64,000 nt of DNA, from assembly GCF_964340395.1 (NCBI RefSeq), contig NC_135552.1, forward strand, positions 28,182,181 through 28,246,180. Reading direction: 5' to 3'. The stretch comes from Glandiceps talaboti. Lineage: Eukaryota; Hemichordata; Enteropneusta; Spengelidae. Positions 5,241-42,052 of this stretch are shown in pieces. Position 1 is the stretch's first letter. Every line of letters starts with the position of its first letter. A program made the position numbers and the translations under genes. The notes beneath the pieces were generated by a model. That model saw only the letters and a list, made by a program, of their open reading frames with translations, had not been told where the DNA came from and ran no database searches.

Positions 5241-6439
5241 AACAATCGTACACGGCGTTAAAATTAAGAGTTGAGACATTTGTGTATTAAACGAAAACAC
5301 TAAAGTACACACATTTACTCGTACAGTTTTACGGATTACATAACAAACAAACGGATGTGTATGCGGATGTTTGCATGTAATTATAGACATGATACACAAG
5401 CCTACGTCGGAGAGATAGGAGAGCTCGAGAGGAAAGTAGGACCTCTCTGGTGCTACGATCTTTCACTGACCATCATGGTAATTCCGCCGTAATTACCGTG
5501 CCAGAATGTGACTCGTTCGCAAAATTAAAGTACAAATGGATTTCGAAAAATCTTCAAAAAGGGCGGACATCGTCCGTTCAATGCTTTGGGAAAGTGTTTA
5601 GTTTTGCGTCGCACACGATACAAACCGCACTCTAATATCTACGTTAACCCCAGAGTAACTCCATCCATCGGAAAATTTCGTAAAATTCTTACCTTCCATC
5701 GTTGACTAGGGCAAGACAAATCACCAATAAAATACGGAATAAGCAATTATGTTGAGACGACACACAGCAAGAGCACTTGTGAAAAACAGTGCCACGAACA
5801 CGCAGAGGTACGTATAACAATCGAAATGATGACGTAAATGGAAACTTTTGTTATTTTAAGACTCCCCAGCTCTCTCTTTTTATTTTTAAAGACCAAGTCT
5901 GCTGACAGGCGCCGGTCACCAGCGCGTCATAGACCGTTGAAAGCACAGGCACTCGAATCAACGTGTATGATTAAAAAAAAAATATGTATGTCTTATTTAC
6001 ATATAATACAAAATACATATTTTTTTCTACACGTTGATTGGAGTGCCTGTGGTTGAAAGTGAACCCCGTTAGATTGATTGCAGTAACACAACAAAGGTCT
6101 CTCATAGCTCTGGATTCTCAGAAATTATTATCGTCGTCCTGTACGTGCGGATGTCGGACGTTTACCCTTTGTTCGAAGAAAAACAAATTGAAATACCAGT
6201 AATAGCAAATCAGAATTATCACTAAAGTCAAGAAAGAACAGTTTTCGAAGGGAGCCTCCAGTAAATTACAGGGGCGGGGAATGGGATTCCGGGAATCAGG
6301 CTCCATCGCCGGGCTGTTGCGTAAAATTTGACCCTCCATTCAGTAGTGTCAAGAAGTCGGCCTCCTCAATTTTCTTATTCTAAACAGATCAAAGATCTTC
6401 AAAACGTGTCAGAAATGTCAAAGGACCCCGTCAGTATCT
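5241..6439. other. Intergenic stretch, higher in CpG, no gene seen
   Basis: Short open frames only, none with a recognisable family. A short inverted pair (AATCAACGTGTA near 5956 and TACACGTTGATT near 6028) flanks an AT-rich core and may be another small fold-back element. Confidence 0.4.
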
Positions 6440-6974
6440 TATCAATATCAGAAGTATAAAGCTGAAAATTACAGACCAATCTCGCTTTACATGTGTATGC
6501 TGTAAACTTCTGGAACACATAGTAACAAAACACATCATGAACCATGCAGAATCAAATAATATCCTTTACCCATTACAACATGGATTCAGGCAGCGTCGAT
6601 CCTGTGAAACTCAACTACTTGAGCTCATAGATGTTCTAGTTATGGACTTTTCCAAGGCCTTCGACAGAGTCAGTCTCAACCTGTTGGTACATAAGTTACA
6701 TCACTTTGGTATAAGAGGTAAAACCCTAAATTGGATACAATCTTTCCTACTTCATCGTACCCAAATAGTTGTCACAGATGGTGAAACATCGGACACTATA
6801 GTAAATGAATCAAGGGTCCCACAAGGGTCTGTATTGGGACCGTCACTGTTCCTATTCTACATTTATACATGTAACGACATACACGAAGACCTGAACTCCA
6901 CTATACGCCCGTTTGCAGATGACACAATAGCATACCTTACCATTACATCAGAAGCTGATAAAGCAAACTGTTAA
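6440..6974 (+). mobile_element. LINE fragment, reverse-transcriptase palm with internal deletion
   Basis: Starts near AENYRPIS (finger motif) and runs through LYPLQHGFRQRRSCETQLLE, MDFSKAFDRV, SRVPQGSVLGP and the catalytic FADDT. A segment of the usual length between the GFR block and the MDFSKAFD block is missing. A frameshift lies upstream of 6537 and the frame stops at 6972. It belongs to a CR1/Jockey-type non-LTR lineage; the exact clade is not determined. It may be a sister copy of the two other fragments in the first 7 kb. Confidence 0.75.
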
Positions 6975-26700: not shown

Positions 26701-28814
26701 TCATACTTCAAATGTTTTTGTACCAAATAAACAAGAAATTGATATCAATCTATTATCATTATAAATGAAAATGACAGTAAAATAGATCTAGGAAAACTTA
26801 AAAGTCTATCATGTGTTACTGTCCCAAAATATGGACATTTGCTCCAATGGTTAGGGATGGCTATCTACTAGTATCCAACAAGAGAGGGGCTGGGTAGATA
26901 TTTAGATACACACAAATCCATAGTGGGGCTGTATTGTTTAATTAGTATGTATTATTATTATCAGGAAATAAATAACGTGGAAAACAATGTCAGAAGTATG
27001 CTGATTCTGACCTGTGTTGTCACACTCATTAATATATTTTGGTGTTTTGTTTGAACAGGCTGTTTGTACCGATGGTAAATTATTCAATCATCTAGTGACA
27101 ATATGGAGATTTCGACCTGGACTTCCTGGCAAACCAAATACTTGTACACTAGACTTTCAGGTAGTTATATTATGTGTCTTGAATATAATGCATTTGTCTT
27201 TATTTCCAACTGATAAAACATATATTGGTATTTAAGGTGTAAATTTAGTAATGTGTTCCATATGAAATTATGACAAACTGTTCTCAACAGTGTGGGTGGT
27301 CATTTTGATAATATTGATCACATACACATGTCCTTGTCCCAATTTGTTCTCAATGATTTATTAATTAGATATTATTATTCTCCAATATTTTTCTTCATTC
27401 GCCCAAGGAAAATATGAGTGACCTAAGGGGCCTTTGTCAACCCTTAGGTCACAAGTATTTTCTGGCTGAATGAAGAAATAAATTTAGAGAATAACGTAAT
27501 TATACCAGCGCCAGTAACATCAAAGAAAAATCAGCGAAAGTAATGGCAATTTTGAACACAGCAGAACCAGTGACACGTATTGTCGTGACAAGACCCAGTC
27601 TGTGTTTGTAACTCAGTACAGTGCAAGAAGCTAAAAAATTGTAAATAGTTATTGTATGTACAATAACAAACATTTTACACATTTATTAATCTTTTTCAAT
27701 TTACTGAGTTACAAACAATGACTTGGCAAATGTTGTTTCACTTTTATTTTTCAAGTAGGATGCCATGGTATAATTGTTTTATCCAAAATATATATCTAAT
27801 CCTCATCCATACAGCCATTTTAAATTTGACAATTATTATTAGTTTTGATTTATTGGAGAGTGTCTTGTCATCTTTAGGTGTGACTTGTCAATATATCCTG
27901 TCAACAACTCATATACCATGTGTCATTTATAAAGGGGAACAACACTCCAAGAATAAAGTAAAATTTCTAAACTTGTGGTTCTGGATAGTGATTTAATTAA
28001 GGATTTGACATCACCTTTGAACAAAGAATACTGCAAGTACATAGCCTGAATATGTCCAAAGTCAGGACGGGGACTTATGGAATGGGTTCCGTCTGTCCGT
28101 GCGTGCGTCCGTCCGTCCGCCCGCAGCTGTTTCTTGGAGATGCCTGGACCGATTTTTTTCAAACTTGGTACAGGGGCAACATACAATGGCATACATATGC
28201 ACGTCAATTTGTTTCATGATACGATCCAATATGGCCGCCTGGCAGCCATTTTGTTTGCGAATTTTCCATGTCCAAAGCCATAACTCAAACATGCTTGAAC
28301 AGATCTCATTCAAAGTTGGTATTAGCAGTGTTCTGTGACATACATGTGCATATCCATTTTCATCTTGATACAATCCGATATGGCTGCCTGGCAGCCATTT
28401 TGTTAGCGCAGTTTTCATGTCCAAAGCCATAACTCAGACATGCTTGAACAGAGTAGTGATATCAAATACAACCATATGAGGCCAAACAACATTAACCAGG
28501 TTTGAAAATGACAACATAAACTGCCAGTTCCTTAAAACCCAATCATAGCGGGGGCTATGTCATTTTCAATGACTTGTTTGTTGGTAATTTGGGACAAGTT
28601 TCTCACAAATAGTTTCATTCAGTGATGTCTTTTTCTTTACTTGCAGGTATCCTTTGAATTCAGGAGTGCTTTACACTCCCACCTGTCTCATCTATTCTTT
28701 GATGAAGTTGTCAAGAAGAATGTTGGTGCTTTCCTGAAGAGGGCACAAACTGTGTATGGTCCACAGAAAGTCGTTACCGGTAACAGCAGACCACAGATTC
28801 TGCAGAGTGCGTGA
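23776..28814 (+). CDS. COQ10: Coenzyme Q-binding START-domain protein COQ10, complete, 5 exons
   Basis: Mitochondrial START/polyketide-cyclase-like protein that binds coenzyme Q and is needed for its efficient use in respiration. Exons 23776-23867, 24611-24787, 26237-26429, 27059-27160 and 28647-28814 splice in frame to 243 aa (human COQ10B 238). The first 70 residues are basic and Ser/Thr-rich, as in an import presequence. The conserved part starts at [19 protein letters not shown] and includes HYNEFVPWC, the [15 protein letters not shown] strand, [11 protein letters not shown] and [13 protein letters not shown]. Intron 1 carries a 104-bp transposon (24211-24314) and intron 4 a fold-back element (27375-27494) and an interspersed repeat. 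The first canonical AATAAA downstream is at 32217-32222, which would give a 3' UTR of about 3.4 kb. Vertebrates have two copies (COQ10A and COQ10B); only one is seen here. Confidence 0.95.
24211..24314. mobile_element. Short DNA transposon (MITE), copy B, 104 bp
   Basis: Same element as copy A: ends TAGTCCTGCTTACA and TGCGAGCAGGACTA, with shared core blocks GGTGCACGAGTCT and GACAATTGTCAGAATCGAGT. It is flanked by a perfect 9-bp direct repeat GAGTCGTAC (24202-24210 and 24315-24323). It lies in COQ10 intron 1. Confidence 0.87.
27375..27494. mobile_element. Fold-back MITE-like element, 120 bp, COQ10 intron 4
   Basis: Nearly the whole element is an inverted repeat: TTATTCTC...CTTCATTC...GTGACCTAAGGG on the left mirrors CCCTTAGGTCAC...GAATGAAG...GAGAATAA on the right, around an 11-bp loop. 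Small interruptions in the arms show that it is not recent. Confidence 0.65.
28045..28590. repeat. Interspersed repeat with two internal subunits of about 149 bp
   Basis: A GTCCGTCC-rich head is followed by two diverged copies of a segment containing GCCTGGCAGCCATTTTGTT (near 28234 and 28383) and TCCAAAGCCATAACTCA. It ends near GCGGGGGCTATGTCATTTTC. The multi-copy nature elsewhere is inferred from style only. Confidence 0.55.
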
Positions 28815-33870: not shown

Positions 33871-36800
33871 TTACATCATGCCCCCCATACCGCCCATACC
33901 GCCCATACCTCCCATTCCGCCCATACCACCCATACCACCACCCATAGGTAGATCTTTTTCTTCTTTTGGCATTTCTGTGACTACAGCTTCTGATGTGGTG
34001 AGTAATGATGCGACACCTGATGCGTCAACAAGTGCTGTCCTCACAACCTGCGGAAAGTACAAAACCATTCGAATTAGATTCATATCCAAGACAAAAGAAG
34101 GAAGTCAACAGTCTGAATAAAAACAATCGAGATATTTTACAAATGTTTACAGCACATCAACAGATGAGTCCCATTTTGACAGGCACATCAAAAAGGAATT
34201 ATTGCACAATGTCAGTTAAGAACAGTCTCCCTTCGAAGGCACAAACATCACATGGGTTGACTTTGTATTACAATTACTCTTGAAAGATAAATTTTGTTTT
34301 GATGCCTCAAAATTTGACTAAATGAAATTCAAATGTATCATTTTATGTTCAACCACTAGGGAGTATCCAACAGATAAGTCTACTAAAATAATTGAAAGAA
34401 CTTAAATCCGGATTTACATCGGACACGTTACAGACTGACAGCATGATGTACATGATCAAGGTCCAATGCTGAGATCATACAAAATACAATAGGTATGCAA
34501 CTAATTTACTTTAGATAGTCGTGAGTCATATACACTTACCTTTGTTGGATCAATGATACCAGCTTTGATCATATCTACATATTCACCATTGAGGGCGTCA
34601 TAACCAATTTCTGGAGATGACTGTAAAATTTTTTCCACCACTAGGGAACCTTCGACACCAGCATTATTAGCAATAGTTGTGGTTGGCATACGTACTGACC
34701 GTCGCACAATTTCAACACCTGTAAGAGGAAATGGATTTTTAGGACCACACACACACACTGTAAAAATGTGAAATTTTCTGTTCAATTTAACTTGTCTGGA
34801 AGAAACTGCATAATTTTCTGGGTAGATATCAATATGCAATAATGGGGGGACTCTGAACACTGTCAATATTTTATCAAGTGTACAGTATTTCATTTACCAA
34901 ATAACCAACTATGGGTTGCTAGATCAAGTCTTTAGTTAGTGGAAGTATCACAATTTGAATGATACCCCTCTTATCTGCTCCACTATATGTCACCAGTTCA
35001 ATATTGGCAGTTTGTACTACCCTATCCCTAAACTGATATACAGTTAAGAAAAGTTGGAAGGAGTTTTTACTCTGACTTGTTGGGTGAAAAAAACATGCCA
35101 AGGAAACATACTACTAAGTGATATACACATAGAAAAACAGAGAAAAAGTAACAAAAGCTCAGAATGGCACAATTCTTATGTGCCAACTGCTGGAATCATT
35201 TAAAAATTTGTTGACATCTTGTGCCAAAATTACTTCTAGGTTTCAATATTTCAGTATGAACAGGGCACCTGTACAATACAGCATTCAGACAAATCATTCC
35301 ACAGTACTTTCAGATTGACTAGGGCGATTTGATTGTCATCATAAAACTGCTTATACTGCAATCAAACATTACATATTTGTACAATATATAGGAGAACCAG
35401 AAATAAATTAAAATTTCTCACCTGTTTCTTGGTCTTTGTTTGCACACTTGACATTGTCCAAAGCTGGAAGACACCTGAGCAATGCAACGCCACCACCAAT
35501 CACGATACCTTCTTCTACGGCAGCTTTTGTAGCATTCAGTGCGTCATTTACACGGTCTTTCTTTTCATTCACTTCAACATCACTGGATCCACCAATCTGA
35601 AAGGTCAATGGGCAAACACGATGTTGGCTACCTATCTTAGAACTTTCAATTCAAGACACGACTCAAAATAAGATGTTGTCATTCAGCATAAATATTATCC
35701 TGTCCTATAAAGACTATCTAGGAAGCAACAACACAAACTACACAATTGACACCCCCACCTAGCTCCCTTCCAACACTGAATCACCGAAATCTCACCTTGA
35801 GAACTGCAACACCATCAGACAACTTGGCAAGTCTTTCACTAAGTTTTTCTTTTTCATATTCTGATGTTGAGTCTTCAATTTCTTCCTTGAGCAGAGCAAC
35901 TCTCCTGTCCATGGCTTCTTTGTCTCCCTTACCCTAGACAAGCGAATAACATTCAAAGTTGCGTTAGGGTGATGACAAGTTTTTGTAGCATTAAAGTTTC
36001 TCTTTCTGAAAATCAACGGGCACATTTTTTTTTTGCAATGAGCTGGTGATGTAAGGCAACAGAGGAAAATACAATACAAAAGAATGTACCACTCATAACA
36101 TCATTACAACAGTCAAACTTCCACTACTGTACAATGCAGAATTCAGACAAAAATCATTCCACAGTTCTTTCAGATTGACTAGGGCGATTTGTTTGTCATC
36201 ATAATACTGCAAGTGAGAAATAAGACATTGGCATTGATATTGACATAATAGATAATAGACACTGATAAGAAATACAAGACTTTGTAGTATTAAAGTTTCT
36301 GTTTTTGCAAATCAACAGGTGCATGTTTTACAAATCAATGGACGCAGTTGCCATATATCAAATTTTACTATATGCTGGTGGCAGAAGGCAAAAGAGAAAA
36401 ATATAACATTAGAGAATGGTAAAACCTAATTAAGAATGTTGAAAAGACTTCTAAAGTTCTTGACACCTCAAAATATTAAATGTGCTTGTAGGTGTACCAT
36501 TCTCTAAGAATCACTAGTTTAGAGACTTCAAGTCACCTTGAGGAGTAATGTATCATCCTTTGTGATGACAACTTCACCAATGATACCAAAGTCTTGGGCT
36601 TGTACTTCTTCAAGCTTCAATTCAATACCTTCCTGACCAAACACCATACCACCAGTTGCAATGGCCATGTCATGGAGTTGATTCTTTCTGTTGTCACCAA
36701 ATCCTGGTGCTTTAACAGCAACAACTTGGAGACCAACTTTAAGCCTATGTACATGAGATAATAATCATATAGCTATTTAGTCTATCTTTTCACTATCACA

Positions 36801-39800
36801 GGGGATACAATGGAATGGGCTAAGAAGATACATGCAGTTTCCCTTATTGCATACAACTTTAGGAATTACTATGCTGACAGTAGTTTTACAACAAATTCCA
36901 ATACAACCTGCTAATTTCCACTTACAACCATTGTCAATCCTGTTTTTCCAAACTTTGTAAGTTTCAGTTTTTTTTTGTGCACAAAAAATAACCCAGTAAA
37001 AAGGATTAAATTTGATGAACCGTGTAAAATAGTATTTTGGGGGTTTGGTATAATTTCTTCATTTCTAGGGTGCTTGGAATGAATAAGCAAAAACACACAA
37101 AGTGCCATTCACATCATTACATCATCAAAACTACTAATACTGGGTAGAATTTAGGGGTTGACTGACGTGTGAGGGCGCTATGTCAGAGCGTACCTTACAC
37201 ACTGGGCAGAATTCAGACAAAATCGATCCACAGTACTTTCAGATTGACTAGGGCGATTAGTTTGTCATCATAAAACTGCCAGTCATGAAATGTGATTAAA
37301 ATCAAGACAAAGTACAGCACGTTTGCCACCTTCATATTTTGATACTGTTGTAATTTGCAACCAACAACAGGGAAACTTTGAGTTTGGTTACAGGGAACAT
37401 TTCCATGACAAGCATTCTCGCACACTTTCATAATTTATAAAGACTTCATTCACCTGTTAAGAACCATTGTACTAAGAGCTTCACCATCGATATCCTCAGC
37501 TATGATAACTAATGGTTTTCTTTGTGAATTGGCTAGTTCTAACGCTGGTACTATTTGTTGTATACTGGATATTTTCTTCTCACTCAACAACAGAAACGCA
37601 TCCTGGTATTCTACTTTTTGTCCTGTGTGAAGAATGGGAAACATCACTTATCTGTGTTATGTTGCTTGTCACAACTTTTCATCCAGACTGATTTGTCACT
37701 TAAAGCAGAAATCAGATATTGTCAATCTACATAATACTTCAGATTGACTGAGGCGACTTAGATGTCATCATGTATCTGCAGTGATCAGAACCAAACTTTG
37801 CTCCGATTTTTATGTGATAGGTTCTAAGAGCAAGAGATAGCCCCTGTACAAATCTGAAAGAGATAGCCCCTGTACAAATCTGAGAGAGATAGCCCATATA
37901 CTGACATATCTAGGAGAAAGAATTAGCCCCTGCACATAAGCGAAAGAGATAGCCCCTGTACAAATCTAAAAGAAAGATTTAGCCCCTGTACAAATCTAAG
38001 AGATATAGCCCCTGTACAAATCTTGGAGCAAATTTAAGTACATTAAAAGGTCAGAAAAGGTTGTGATTTGTATTATAGGACATGTATATTTTTCAACTTT
38101 GATACGTATTGCAAAATGACTACTAGATAAACAGAAATAGTAAGATAAGTAATAAGAAATGTAAATAAAGAACCTACCTTTTGGTGTATTGATAAAATAT
38201 GGTGAGATATAACCCCTGTCGAATTTCATACCCTCAATAATATCTAATTCATCATGTAAAGTTTTGCCATCTTTGACTGTGATGACACCATCTCTTCCAA
38301 CTCTTTTCATAGCTTTTGAGATAAGACTTCCAATTTCTTGGTCACCATTGGCTGAAATCGTTGCAACCTGAAAAGTAAAAACAATGCAATTACTTAGTTG
38401 TGACTGCACTTCTTCCCTGATTGTCAAGCATTGAAATTATTTAGCTAACATGCATAATTTATATGCACATGAGTGCCTTTAATTAATATCACAAGCTGAT
38501 ATCTACACTGAGTCTCGTCGAAAGCACATCTATTTCAACTTTAAAACTGGAAAGTTGCTGCTATAAAACAAAATCTCAATATTATGATAACTATACTTCA
38601 GTAGTTCCACACACTTCTTTCTCCATCCCATAAATATAATCTGGGCAGAATTCAGACAAATCATTCCACAGTACTTTCAGATTGACTAGGGCGATTTGAT
38701 TGTCATCATTATACTGCCATGATATTTGAAAACTGTCAACTAGACAAGTTGCTGCTTCCACTTCTCTTTACCCTTTATTGCAGTACAAATGTATAATATA
38801 TTATCCAATGTGATTTGCAACTTGTCAAAAAAGGGTAATGAAGTTTAAGAATGGATTTATCAGAATAACTTCGTTGTACACACAGAAGGGGTTACCTTGA
38901 AATTGTGTAATTTCCTTACTTAGAAGTACACAGAAGGGAACTTACCTGTGCTATTTCTTCTGGTGTTGTGACTGGTTTAGATAAATTTTTCAATTCTTCA
39001 ACAATAGTTTCTACTGCCAGCATTACACCTTAAGTGATGGATACAAAAACATGGATTAATTGACAGTTTGAAAAGATTATGAAAGAAGTGTTCAGTACGA
39101 AAAGCCAGTCTTCAGTCTCAGAAGTTTTGAGGGGGAAAACCTGCATGGACAATTGTTTTGTTAATAAATAACACTCACATTCACAAAATGATGATTCATT
39201 TCAAACAGACACTTGCCACATCAAAGCACTATCAGAAGATTAATATCTAAACTGTCACTGGGTGACTGATTGTACAGTAACTTGTGTGGTATGATTGACC
39301 ATTGACACATCACTCAACTAACCTTGACCCCCTAGGTACTCTTAACCTATGAACTCCAGTCAACCCTTCCATGTATTCATCAATTGATTGATTGATTGAT
39401 TGATTCTTTAGATACCCAGTTCACTTATCTCTCTTTAACTGGCCCACACGTTCTTGTAGGGCTTATAGCCCTGCTTAATATGGTCTAGTATTTGAATGGC
39501 ACATGCCATGATCAAATTAGTGCAGGGCTTAGGAGAGATATATTGCACCTCAAAATAACATTATAGGTTCTACACATTCCTTTACCCCACTCCTTTAACT
39601 TCATTCCCTGAAATCTGAAAGAGGCTGTATGCCTCAAAATGCTAGTGCAATTTATGAACACATTGAACTGTTTTTCCTAATTTGTTATTTTGTTGTACAA
39701 ACAAGTACATCCTGGTAGAAAGAGCATAATCTCAGAGTGCCTCCAGACCACTAAATCAATTTTCCCATCCTTAATATTATAAAAACATGGTAAGCATTTC

Positions 39801-40664
39801 AATGCTGGGCAGAATTCAGACAAATCATTCCACAGTACTTTCAGATTGACTAGGGCGATTTGTTTGTCATCATTATACTGCCTTGATTGAATGTTAATGA
39901 ACACTACAATAAGAGTGGAACACCTACCTCGCCTAATTTCTACTGGATTAGCTCCTTTACTAATTTTTTCAAAACCTTCTTTTGCGATTGCTCTTGCTAA
40001 GATAGTAGCTGTTGTCGTTCCATCTCCAGCCTCTTCATTTGTGTTATTAGCTACATCTTGTACAAGTTTTGCACCAACGTTCATGTATTTGTCTTTTAAT
40101 TCAATACCCTTTGCCACTGTCACACCATCTTTTGTAATCTTTGGACTGCCCCAACTTTGTTCTAAAATAACATTACGTCCCTGTCACAAAACAGAAAAGA
40201 AAAAGTTATTTTTCACGAGATGAAAAGATCACATCATGCAAACTGGTTGGAGAACACTCCATAGATGTGCATTCCCAGCACCCTTTGAGACTACAATCAT
40301 CATATTCATGTATCAAGTTTTACTTCAAATGTTCATGATCATTCATAATGATTGACAATTCTACTTTTGAATCTCATGTGGCAAAAAGAAGTTGGTTATT
40401 TCACACTGAAACAAGGAATATGATCGTCTTTGTTTCACTTCAAATCTTGCAAGAAATTGCTTCAAGAAATACCTTTGGTCCTAGTGTAACTCCTACTGCA
40501 TCGGCAAGTACATCAACACCCTGTAACATCAAAGCTCTTGCTTCTCCACCAAACTTAATGTCCTTAGCATATGTACGTGATACATATGGAGCTACAATCC
40601 TTGCCATGGATGGAGACAATGCCCTTGATGCTAAGGGTTTTATTATACTTGGTAGGCGATACAT
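33871..40664 (-). CDS. HSPD1: Mitochondrial chaperonin Hsp60, complete, 10 coding exons plus a leader exon
   Basis: Group I chaperonin of the mitochondrial matrix; forms heptameric rings that fold imported proteins with Hsp10. Coding exons: 40473-40664, 39928-40180, 38946-39028, 38178-38367, 37454-37622, 36537-36744, 35796-35933, 35422-35596, 34540-34718, 33871-34047. All junctions are GT-AG and phases close to give 587 aa (human 573). An arginine-rich presequence ends at RTY before AKDIKFG, matching the human cleavage site. The nucleotide-binding GDGTTTATI (catalytic Asp at residue 117), the GGGVALLR segment and the DPTKVVRTAL stretch are intact. The C-terminus carries the Gly-Gly-Met tail typical of GroEL and Hsp60, here with about seven repeats. 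Six introns each contain a C/D-box snoRNA-like element. The 5' UTR is interrupted by an intron of about 1.4 kb. Divergent from HSPE1. Confidence 0.97.
35278..35350 (-). ncRNA. C/D-box snoRNA-like element, HSPD1 intron 9 copy
   Basis: C box ATGATGA, D' and D boxes CTGA and an unchanged guide. The terminal stem is weaker than in the other copies because the 3' end reads ATGCTG. It starts 71 nt after the 5' splice site. Confidence 0.72.
36136..36210 (-). ncRNA. C/D-box snoRNA-like element, HSPD1 intron 7 copy
   Basis: C box ATGATGA, D' and D boxes CTGA, a GCAG/CTGC stem and an unchanged guide. It has two extra T residues before the D box. A locally duplicated segment of the intron lies on each side (about 35975-36090 and 36275-36420). 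Confidence 0.78.
37205..37280 (-). ncRNA. C/D-box snoRNA-like element, HSPD1 intron 6 copy
   Basis: Same architecture and the same guide as the intron 3 copy, with a GGCAG/CTGCC stem. The C box is TATGATGA. The region before the D box differs by a few bases. Confidence 0.78.
37705..37779 (-). ncRNA. C/D-box snoRNA-like element, HSPD1 intron 5 copy (diverged)
   Basis: The most diverged copy. It keeps C box ATGATGA, D' and D boxes CTGA and a GCAG/CTGC stem, while the rest has changed widely. The guide reads GTCGCCTCAGTCAA, which still pairs at all 14 positions with the same rRNA segment by using different G-U wobbles. It sits 82 nt before the 3' splice site, close to the usual place for intron-encoded C/D snoRNAs. 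Confidence 0.75.
37835..38030. repeat. Imperfect minisatellite of about 27-30 bp in HSPD1 intron 5
   Basis: About seven copies of a unit built on TAGCCCCTGTACAAATCT, separated by variable AGAGA spacers. It lies just upstream of the exon ending the intron's 5' side. Confidence 0.85.
38644..38718 (-). ncRNA. C/D-box snoRNA-like element, HSPD1 intron 4 copy
   Basis: Almost identical to the intron 3 copy, including the GGCAG/CTGCC stem, ATGATGA C box, CTGA D' and D boxes and the guide. It lies 276 nt before the 3' splice site of its intron. Confidence 0.8.
39808..39882 (-). ncRNA. C/D-box snoRNA-like element, HSPD1 intron 3 copy
   Basis: Read on the HSPD1 strand it has a GGCAG/CTGCC terminal stem, C box ATGATGA, D' box CTGA, a degenerate C' region (GGAATGA) and D box CTGA six bases before the closing stem. 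The guide ATCGCCCTAGTCAA, one base before D', can pair with large-subunit rRNA UUGACUGGGGCGGU. It starts 45 nt after the 5' splice site. Confidence 0.8.
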
Positions 40665-42052
40665 TTTTCTCTGTGAATCAATGAAAGTGACAAATTGTTA
40701 ATTCTGAGAGCCTTAAAGGAAAAGTGGCTATCACATGAACTTAGCATAATATACTTCAACAATATCTCCTGGTCAATGTCATAAGCCACAGGCCTCTTTA
40801 CAACACTGTCCAAAACATACTACCTTCACAAAAATGTTGTTGCTTCAGCAGAAATATCATGTACTCTGGCTTGTGAGTGTTCTGTTCCACTGCATGTCTA
40901 CTATGCCCTCACAGTTCACTGTGGCAAGACCAGTGGTCAATACAAGCTCTCAGCATGACCTCTGGTTGCTTGCTTCCAGTTTATACATATTACAGTAATG
41001 TATTTCAACACCATTTTATCTCAGATTATCATTATATACACCAGGGACATTCAGCCCCACCAAAGTATCTGCCAATGTTTAGTTGGAAGAGGTGACTTTA
41101 GCCAGACAGTGAGACCATACTGCCATCATGGAGGTATTTGGGAAAACTTAAATACTGCCATGCTGCCATAAACCAATCACATGAAAAGCACAGTGAAGTG
41201 TGAAAACATTTCAATTTCAAATGAAATCATTCTGTACAATAGTGATTTTTCCAAATTTGAACAAAGCAAAACCTATGTATTTTTGAAGTGTTGGTATGTG
41301 TTTGTCAAATCAAGTTCTAACTTAGTTTTGAATTCATAGCATCAACAATTTTAATCTTTTAATAAAAAAAATATTGTAATCATCAAAAATATGTCTTAAT
41401 GTCACACTGGGCATTCACGGCTAACAAACTGTAATACATAAAAACTCACTAGATTTTACTTTCAGAGCCTTTTCGTGTAGGACTATGATTTGATATGTAC
41501 AATACATAACTATTATAATGCAAACCAGTTGTTAATGAATTTCCTTTAACAATGGCTCCCCTAATGAAAATGTATATAGTTTACAATTCTGTTATCACTG
41601 TATTGTTGAAAGTGTAAAGACACAACAAGGGGTGGGGTGAGGAATTAACCCTTTCAGATATGATGACGACACACACAATCTTGTTGCAACATATCATTAG
41701 AATGTTAAATTCTGATGCCGCTCAGACAAGTTCCCCTAAGTTCGAGAAAACGAACAACCCTTGGTTATAATGAAAGATTGTGTGTTTCACTAACTTAATT
41801 TTCTTGATGAAAGGGAAAATAAAGCTACGGTAGTTCGTAATATCAATCTACATAGTACATTGTAAAATGTTTTTCTAAGGCAGATATATTTACGACAACA
41901 TTCCCGGCTATCTGGCGCATTGGCTATGTACCCACGTGGGCCATGCGAAGCCCTCAAAGATCTGCATGTTCTGACTTCAAATATACGCAGAAATCATACG
42001 TCCCATAAATAGTTCTTTGGGAAAAAGCAATAAGAGAAAAATGTATACTTAC

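What the first reader, a model, noticed from the sequence alone, without database searches (positions are those of the whole stretch)
35278..39882. A six-copy C/D-box snoRNA family, one per intron, inside Hsp60
Six introns of HSPD1 (3, 4, 5, 6, 7 and 9) each hold one element of about 75 nt on the host strand, with a C box (ATGATGA), D' and D boxes (CTGA) and a short terminal stem. The only intron skipped between 3 and 9 is intron 8, which is just 199 nt long. Seen directly: the boxes, stems, shared guide and orientation. Known: animal C/D snoRNAs are usually processed from introns of highly expressed housekeeping genes. Inferred: this is an expanded snoRNA family hosted by Hsp60. I do not recall a C/D snoRNA in human HSPD1, so it may be lineage-specific or lost in vertebrates.
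Basis: partly seen in the sequence, partly recalled or inferred. Interest (0 to 1): 0.88.

Follow-up and report, generated by a model that had tools for sequence, protein, structure and literature searches.

The report
Six snoRNA copies in Hsp60 introns
Six introns of an animal Hsp60 gene each seem to carry one copy of a small guide RNA gene whose guide matches the tRNA-binding P-loop of the ribosome, but set four bases off from the usual guide, so it may mark a different ribosomal base; this is predicted from sequence only and no RNA has been seen.

Summary
Introns 3, 4, 5, 6, 7 and 9 of HSPD1 (minus strand) each hold one 73-77-nt element with C box ATGATGA, D' and D boxes CTGA and a terminal stem. 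Similarity between introns stops at the edges of that unit, and genome searches found the element in no other gene. It is best read as an intron-hosted box C/D snoRNA family.

The D'+5 rule then points to an A four bases upstream. A SNORD31-like gene in the normal register lies elsewhere in the genome beside SNORD25- and SNORD27-like genes, as in the U22 host gene. So the HSPD1 family looks like an extra, register-shifted P-loop guide. In the divergent intron-5 copy, all three guide changes keep pairing.

Not shown: expression, methylation, conservation in other species. The organism's own P-loop was not found in the held assembly. A new member of a known kind, with a testable retargeting prediction.

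The parts
33871..40668 (-). Host gene HSPD1 (Hsp60), coding exons 2-11 with introns 2-10; noncoding exon 1 lies above 40668 and was not located
   Evidence: Reading frame and GT-AG junctions; Cpn60_TCP1 on one exon piece
39808..39882 (-). C/D snoRNA copy in intron 3; C box 39867-39873, D' box 39841-39844, D box 39816-39819
38644..38718 (-). C/D snoRNA copy in intron 4; C box starts 38709, D box ends 38652
   Evidence: best Rfam match SNORD31, 19.2 bits, cut-off 40
37705..37779 (-). C/D snoRNA copy in intron 5, the divergent one; C box starts 37771, D box ends 37712; guide GUCGCCUCAGUCAA
   Evidence: Rfam snoU31b 29.2 bits, cut-off 37
37205..37280 (-). C/D snoRNA copy in intron 6; C box starts 37271, D box ends 37213
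   Evidence: no Rfam match at E up to 10
36135..36211 (-). C/D snoRNA copy in intron 7; C box starts 36202, D box ends 36143
   Evidence: no Rfam match at E up to 10
35278..35350 (-). C/D snoRNA copy in intron 9; C box starts 35342, D box ends 35285
   Evidence: Rfam SNORD31 18.1 bits, cut-off 40
39846..39859 (-). Guide positions 2-15 (AUCGCCCUAGUCAA, shown for the intron-3 copy; same letters in five copies), predicted to pair with the 28S P-loop; separated from the SNORD31 register by 4 nt before D'

Best explanation
A six-copy family of box C/D 2'-O-methylation guide snoRNAs, one per intron of HSPD1, released from the spliced introns. Each has one working guide, upstream of D', that pairs at positions 2-15 with the 28S rRNA P-loop hairpin (UUGACUGGGGCGGU). 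By the D'+5 rule it directs methylation of the A in UUGACUGG (E. coli A2247 and yeast 2615 equivalents, by counting back four from the known G), four bases 5' of the G set by SNORD31/snR67. Shown: anatomy, copy number, host-strand placement, no further copy found in the genome, guide complementarity to a P-loop sequence that is recalled for animals and backed by the Rfam consensus, and a separate SNORD31-like gene in the usual register. Inferred: expression, processing, methylation of the A, and descent from SNORD31. Rough odds: a C/D snoRNA family 0.95; P-loop as target 0.8; the A as the modified base 0.65.
For: Boxes C, D' and D invariant in 6 of 6; boxes plus guide keep 26 of 29 columns invariant against 14 of 32 other columns between C and D (Fisher p 0.0002; columns of related copies are not independent). 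Unit-sized similarity at differing places within the introns. All six on the host strand. No further copy found. Guide core shared with SNORD31, with a 4-base insert before D'. Duplex energy with the P-loop -24.8 kcal/mol in five copies and -22.3 in intron 5, against -24.4 for the SNORD31-like gene; 1 of 4000 shuffled guides pairs over 14 or more bases and 2 of 4000 over 13 or more, on a 389-nt 28S segment. The three guide changes of intron 5 all keep pairing. Terminal stem kept with changes on both sides at 3 of 8 pairs (weak).
Against: No expression or methylation data. No Rfam family reaches its cut-off, and introns 6 and 7 gave no Rfam match at E up to 10. The organism's own P-loop was not found, and the full rRNAs were not available for a search of better targets. 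The stem control is weak: 28 to 214 of 500 shuffles reach the observed values, and two of the eight pairs form in only 2 and 3 of 6 copies. Five of six copies lie 209-787 nt from the 3' splice site, off the recalled vertebrate optimum of about 70-80 nt. Folding energies are ordinary (z -0.02 to -1.64). The target A is not constant among eukaryotes (lower-case g in the Rfam consensus), and I recall no report of methylation there.
Confidence: 0.62

Rival explanations
1. Redundant SNORD31 paralogue: the same P-loop pairing, but the conserved G is methylated, through a degenerate D' four bases upstream, adding copies for a heavily used site.
For: Same guide core as SNORD31; same target stretch.
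Against: A perfect CTGA lies four bases further down in 6 of 6 copies, and the four bases in the SNORD31 place read CAAU. With the guide held at D'+5 on the second G, pairing is broken. A SNORD31-like gene in the usual register exists.
Confidence: 0.12
2. Expressed C/D RNAs that act elsewhere (another RNA, rRNA folding without methylation) or dead copies that no longer act.
For: Full rRNAs and snRNAs were not available to search for better targets; D guide too short and variable for a second target.
Against: The boxes and the P-loop guide are the conserved columns.
Confidence: 0.15
3. Cis-acting intron elements that regulate HSPD1 splicing by pairing with their own introns, as reported for SNORD2 in EIF4A2 (PMC10324135, passages).
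For: One per intron in a multi-intron gene. Five of twelve element-flank comparisons are better than most shuffles (4, 5, 6, 9 and 19 of 60 shuffles reach them).
Against: The other seven of twelve are not (31 to 60 of 60 shuffles reach them); no consistent side or site (60 plain shuffles each).
Confidence: 0.06
4. A non-RNA repeat (mobile element or conversion tract) that happens to carry box-like motifs.
For: High identity among five copies suggests recent duplication or gene conversion.
Against: No copy found outside this gene; always on the host strand; boxes and guide are the conserved columns. Target-site duplications and tails were not tested.
Confidence: 0.03

Closest known systems
SNORD31 / U31 (Rfam RF00089), yeast snR67, Giardia GlsR4, C. 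elegans ceN63
   Same: C box, then about 9 nt, then the guide core CGCCYYAG for the P-loop; D' guide only in use
   Different: Four bases (CAAU) between guide core and D', so D'+5 moves from the G to an A; C-to-U changes in the guide core; host is HSPD1; six copies; Rfam scores far below cut-off
U14 (SNORD14) in hsc70 introns
   Same: Several copies of one C/D snoRNA, one per intron, in a heat-shock protein gene (three in human, mouse and rat: PMC7277114, passages)
   Different: Different snoRNA, target and chaperone. In this genome SNORD14 has five matches, four in a 2.4-kb stretch of C9; its host there was not identified, and by eye no Hsp70 reading frame was seen among the frames listed
U22 host gene (UHG) snoRNAs U25-U31
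   Same: A locus of this genome (L038, C8) has SNORD27-, SNORD25/snR56- and SNORD31-like genes on one strand, all below Rfam cut-offs
   Different: A separate locus on another contig that holds the usual-register P-loop guide; the HSPD1 family is additional

Membership tests
Box C/D snoRNA | C box RUGAUGA and D box CUGA flanked by a terminal stem | tested here: met
   6 of 6; stem 4-bp core plus variable outer pairs
Box C/D snoRNA | Internal D' box with an rRNA-complementary guide just upstream | tested here: met
   CTGA in 6 of 6; 14 bp to the P-loop (three G-U pairs in intron 5, two in the rest); target letters recalled plus Rfam consensus, not this organism's own
Box C/D snoRNA | C' box | tested here: inconclusive
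   Only a degenerate candidate (UGGAAUGA in four copies; read)
Box C/D snoRNA | In an intron, host strand, of a broadly expressed gene | tested here: met
   Intron and strand 6 of 6; broad expression of HSPD1 is recalled
Box C/D snoRNA | Stable RNA bound by the C/D proteins (fibrillarin, NOP56, NOP58, 15.5K) | not testable with these tools
   No RNA data
SNORD31 (RF00089) | Rfam gathering score 40 bits | tested here: not met
   18.1-19.2 bits for introns 9, 5 and 4; snoU31b 29.2 of 37 for intron 5; snR67 20.5 of 55 for intron 3. The C8 SNORD31-like gene also misses it, 26.2
SNORD31 (RF00089) | Guide core for the P-loop | tested here: met
   CGCCCUAG or CGCCUCAG against CGCCCCAG
SNORD31 (RF00089) | D'+5 falls on the P-loop G (yeast G2619, E. 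coli G2251) | tested here: not met
   Falls on the A four bases 5'
Dispersed mobile repeat | Copies scattered over the genome outside this gene | tested here: not met
   Five matches, all in HSPD1 (the intron-5 copy was not listed, and the tool skips very common words); pattern search: 40 of 46 hits elsewhere, one snoRNA-like, of usual register

The most novel reading that the evidence does not exclude
The family is a stress-coupled rival of SNORD31. HSPD1 is stress-inducible (recalled); raising its transcription would release six copies of a guide that occupies the same P-loop stretch, so ribosomes made then would carry a methyl group on the A and perhaps less on the conserved G, where the CCA end of P-site tRNA pairs (recalled). 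That would be a switch in ribosome modification wired to mitochondrial chaperone demand.
Probability: 0.08. Interest if true: 0.85.

Novelty: new member of a known kind. Interest (0 to 1): 0.45.

Why it matters
The P-loop methylation (E. coli Gm2251) is among the conserved ribosome marks. An animal that keeps a usual-register guide and also carries six copies of a related guide shifted by four bases gives a natural test of whether a small insertion before D' moves the methylated base, and of whether a chaperone gene can couple ribosome modification to stress. If only the plain reading holds, it is one more snoRNA host gene, comparable to hsc70 with U14.

Tried and rejected
Transposon or dispersed repeat: rejected. 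The usual guide plus D' (CGCCCCAGTCTGA, exact) gave two genome hits, neither snoRNA-like on reading. Pairing with own introns: no consistent signal. The best weak R1 hit, 26753-26841 in the COQ10-like gene, lacks ATGATGA and CTGA; the other two weak hits were not examined. Folding energies uninformative. The stretch before D was judged no guide because the spacer after the C' candidate is short and varies in length (reading); it was not tested against full rRNAs. Own 28S: four partial matches, of which three were scanned and match the eukaryotic LSU family, one a 3' end (L040) and two degenerate (L039, L041); the P-loop pattern with up to one mismatch gave one hit, with a mismatch, not examined. 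A eukaryotic P-loop in other collections: none in plasmids, viral contigs or genome contigs. Taxon: the mitochondrial contig reads TGA as Trp and has a tRNA order near COX1 that I recall as deuterostome-like; not settled; a paper search on the assembly size held nothing. Papers: HSPD1 with 'snoRNA host gene' and 'intron', 0 papers. Searches (20 listed of 66; 10 of 10; 10 of 88; 10 of 287) listed no title on snoRNAs in Hsp60 introns; the unlisted rows were not seen. Position names A4192/A2615 and the like: 36 papers, 15 listed, none on rRNA by title. Papers seen as passages only: PMC3511168, PMC7277114, PMC11121408, PMC10324135, PMC11175523; the rest as listings.
Full report
Observation. HSPD1 was rebuilt from the minus strand (sequence). 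Of the nine introns 2-10, six (3, 4, 5, 6, 7, 9) hold one element each on the host strand; introns 2, 8 (199 nt) and 10 do not. A covariance model built from the six finds them at 78.9-108.6 bits, high by construction, and three weak hits elsewhere in the window at 19.4, 15.2 and 14.3 bits.

Anatomy. ATGATGA, CTGA (D') and CTGA (D) are invariant in all six. The terminal stem has three invariant pairs (CAG with CUG), one pair with a single G-U change, and outer or inner pairs that vary; 81.3% of cells pair, and three of eight pairs have changes on both sides. This is weak support: 28 of 500 shuffles reach the percentage paired, 42 the pairs changed on both sides, 112 the cells so changed, 214 the pair types and 32 the covariation score; every slid register scores lower. 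Similarity between introns is confined to 34-87 nt: among the five close copies 90-98% identity over 72-87 nt, and for the intron-5 copy about 75% over 77-83 nt to three of them. The C box starts 54 to 406 nt after the 5' splice site. Boxes plus guide keep 26 of 29 columns invariant, against 14 of 32 other columns between C and D.

Distribution. A DNA search of the 590-Mb assembly listed five matches, all in this gene. It did not list the intron-5 copy, so it misses copies that divergent; the tool also skips very common words. A pattern of C box plus guide core gave 46 hits, against 20 for the pattern read backwards. All 40 outside HSPD1 were read by eye (24, 16). One looks like a snoRNA: C8:8084854-8084877.

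Relation to SNORD31. Rfam gives SNORD31 at 19.2, 18.4 and 18.1 bits for introns 4, 5 and 9, snR67 at 20.5 for intron 3, snoU31b at 29.2 for intron 5 and GlsR4 at 19.1 for intron 9, all below the curated cut-offs; introns 6 and 7 have no match at E up to 10. Such scores alone would be chance level; the shared guide core is what matters. The SNORD31 consensus reads ACCGCCCCAG-UCUGA and ours AUCGCCCUAGucaaUCUGA, a four-base insertion before D'. The C8 gene reads ACCGCCCCAGG-CTGA, the usual register, with a 7-bp terminal stem. It scores 34.7 bits to ceN63 (cut-off 65) and 26.2 to SNORD31 (cut-off 40) and is the best SNORD31 hit in the genome, at E 0.319; that search used an E limit of 10, at which 13 of 14 control genomes also gave hits, none over the cut-off. 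The identification rests on guide, boxes, stem and company: on the same strand, within about 3 kb, are SNORD25/snR56-like (34.1 bits, cut-off 54; 10-bp stem) and SNORD27-like (33.5 bits, cut-off 52) genes. The U22 host gene carries U22 and U25-U31 (PMC7277114, passages).

Target. Yeast snR67 directs Gm2619, equal to E. coli Gm2251 (PMC11121408, passages). The Rfam eukaryotic LSU consensus gives the P-loop as GAGUUUGgCUGGGGCGGcACA; the animal form with A at the lower-case g and U at the lower-case c is recalled. Against that form, five HSPD1 guides pair at positions 2-15 with two G-U pairs, and the intron-5 guide at 2-15 with three; best duplex energies are -24.8 and -22.3 kcal/mol. The C8 gene pairs at 2-12, -24.4. 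D'+5 falls on the A for the HSPD1 guides and on the second G for the C8 gene; holding the HSPD1 guide at D'+5 on that G breaks the pairing. Of 4000 shuffled guides, 1 pairs over 14 or more bases and 2 over 13 or more, counted on the recalled 389-nt segment only. The intron-5 guide differs at positions 8 (U to C), 9 (C to U) and 15 (A to G), and each change keeps a pair. A target perfectly complementary to the five-copy guide would mismatch the intron-5 guide at position 8, so the P-loop is the better shared target. The organism's own P-loop was not found in the held assembly.

Mechanism. Most likely these are C/D guide RNAs processed from spliced HSPD1 introns. Their D boxes end 89 (intron 5), 209, 284, 468, 566 and 787 nt before the 3' splice site; the vertebrate optimum I recall is about 70-80 nt. 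Terminal stems may stand in for position (inference; a paper on splicing-dependent and -independent assembly was seen only as a reference title). Pairing with their own introns shows no consistent excess: of twelve element-flank comparisons, 4 to 19 of 60 shuffles reach five and 31 to 60 of 60 reach seven.

Evolution. The best guess is a SNORD31 duplicate that entered an HSPD1 intron, gained four bases before D' and spread from intron to intron, with later homogenisation and one older divergent copy. Descent from SNORD31 rests on guide core and spacing only. Mobility of intronic snoRNAs among broadly expressed genes is described in PMC3511168 (abstract and passages). No animal relatives could be searched, so lineage and age are open.

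Verdict. Real, and a C/D snoRNA family by anatomy; the kind is known and copies in a chaperone gene have a precedent in hsc70 and U14 (PMC7277114, passages). The new and testable point is the shifted register beside a retained usual-register guide.

Noticed in passing
window 5000-54000: Gene order SF3B1-like (-), COQ10-like (+), HSPD1 (-), HSPE1 (+, head to head), citrate synthase (-). The first four match the human order as I recall it. Pfam supports COQ10-like (Polyketide_cyc), HSPE1 (Cpn10) and citrate synthase; SF3B1 is by eye only, and three of its pieces gave no Pfam match.
   Followed up: partly
window 6384-6971: A reverse transcriptase fragment (RVT_1, E 4.5e-21) on the + strand.
   Followed up: no
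window 37823-38023: Short tandem repeats inside HSPD1 intron 5, about 86-96% alike between copies (self-matches).
   Followed up: no
L067 (G000:C9:14740001-14750000): Four SNORD14 (U14) copies within 2.4 kb on one strand and a fifth about 1.9 Mb away, all over the Rfam cut-off. A repeated peptide-like stretch (SIPKHSQFPPKRF) recurs in L067 and L068, hinting at copies that carry flanking repeats. Host not identified.
   Followed up: partly
L038 (G000:C8:8079001-8089000), near 8086082: A further C/D-like candidate with a 6-bp stem between the SNORD25- and SNORD27-like genes; not assigned to a family.
   Followed up: no
L073-L075 (G000:C40): COX1 found three times, 15,435 bases apart, so the contig looks like tandem copies of a mitochondrial genome; in the COX1 stretch read, no AAA codon and ATA at isoleucine sites in 3 of 4 cases.
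   Followed up: partly
L040 (G000:C27), L039, L041: 28S rRNA pieces without the P-loop: a 3' end and two degenerate fragments; the ribosomal repeat seems mostly missing from the held assembly.
   Followed up: partly
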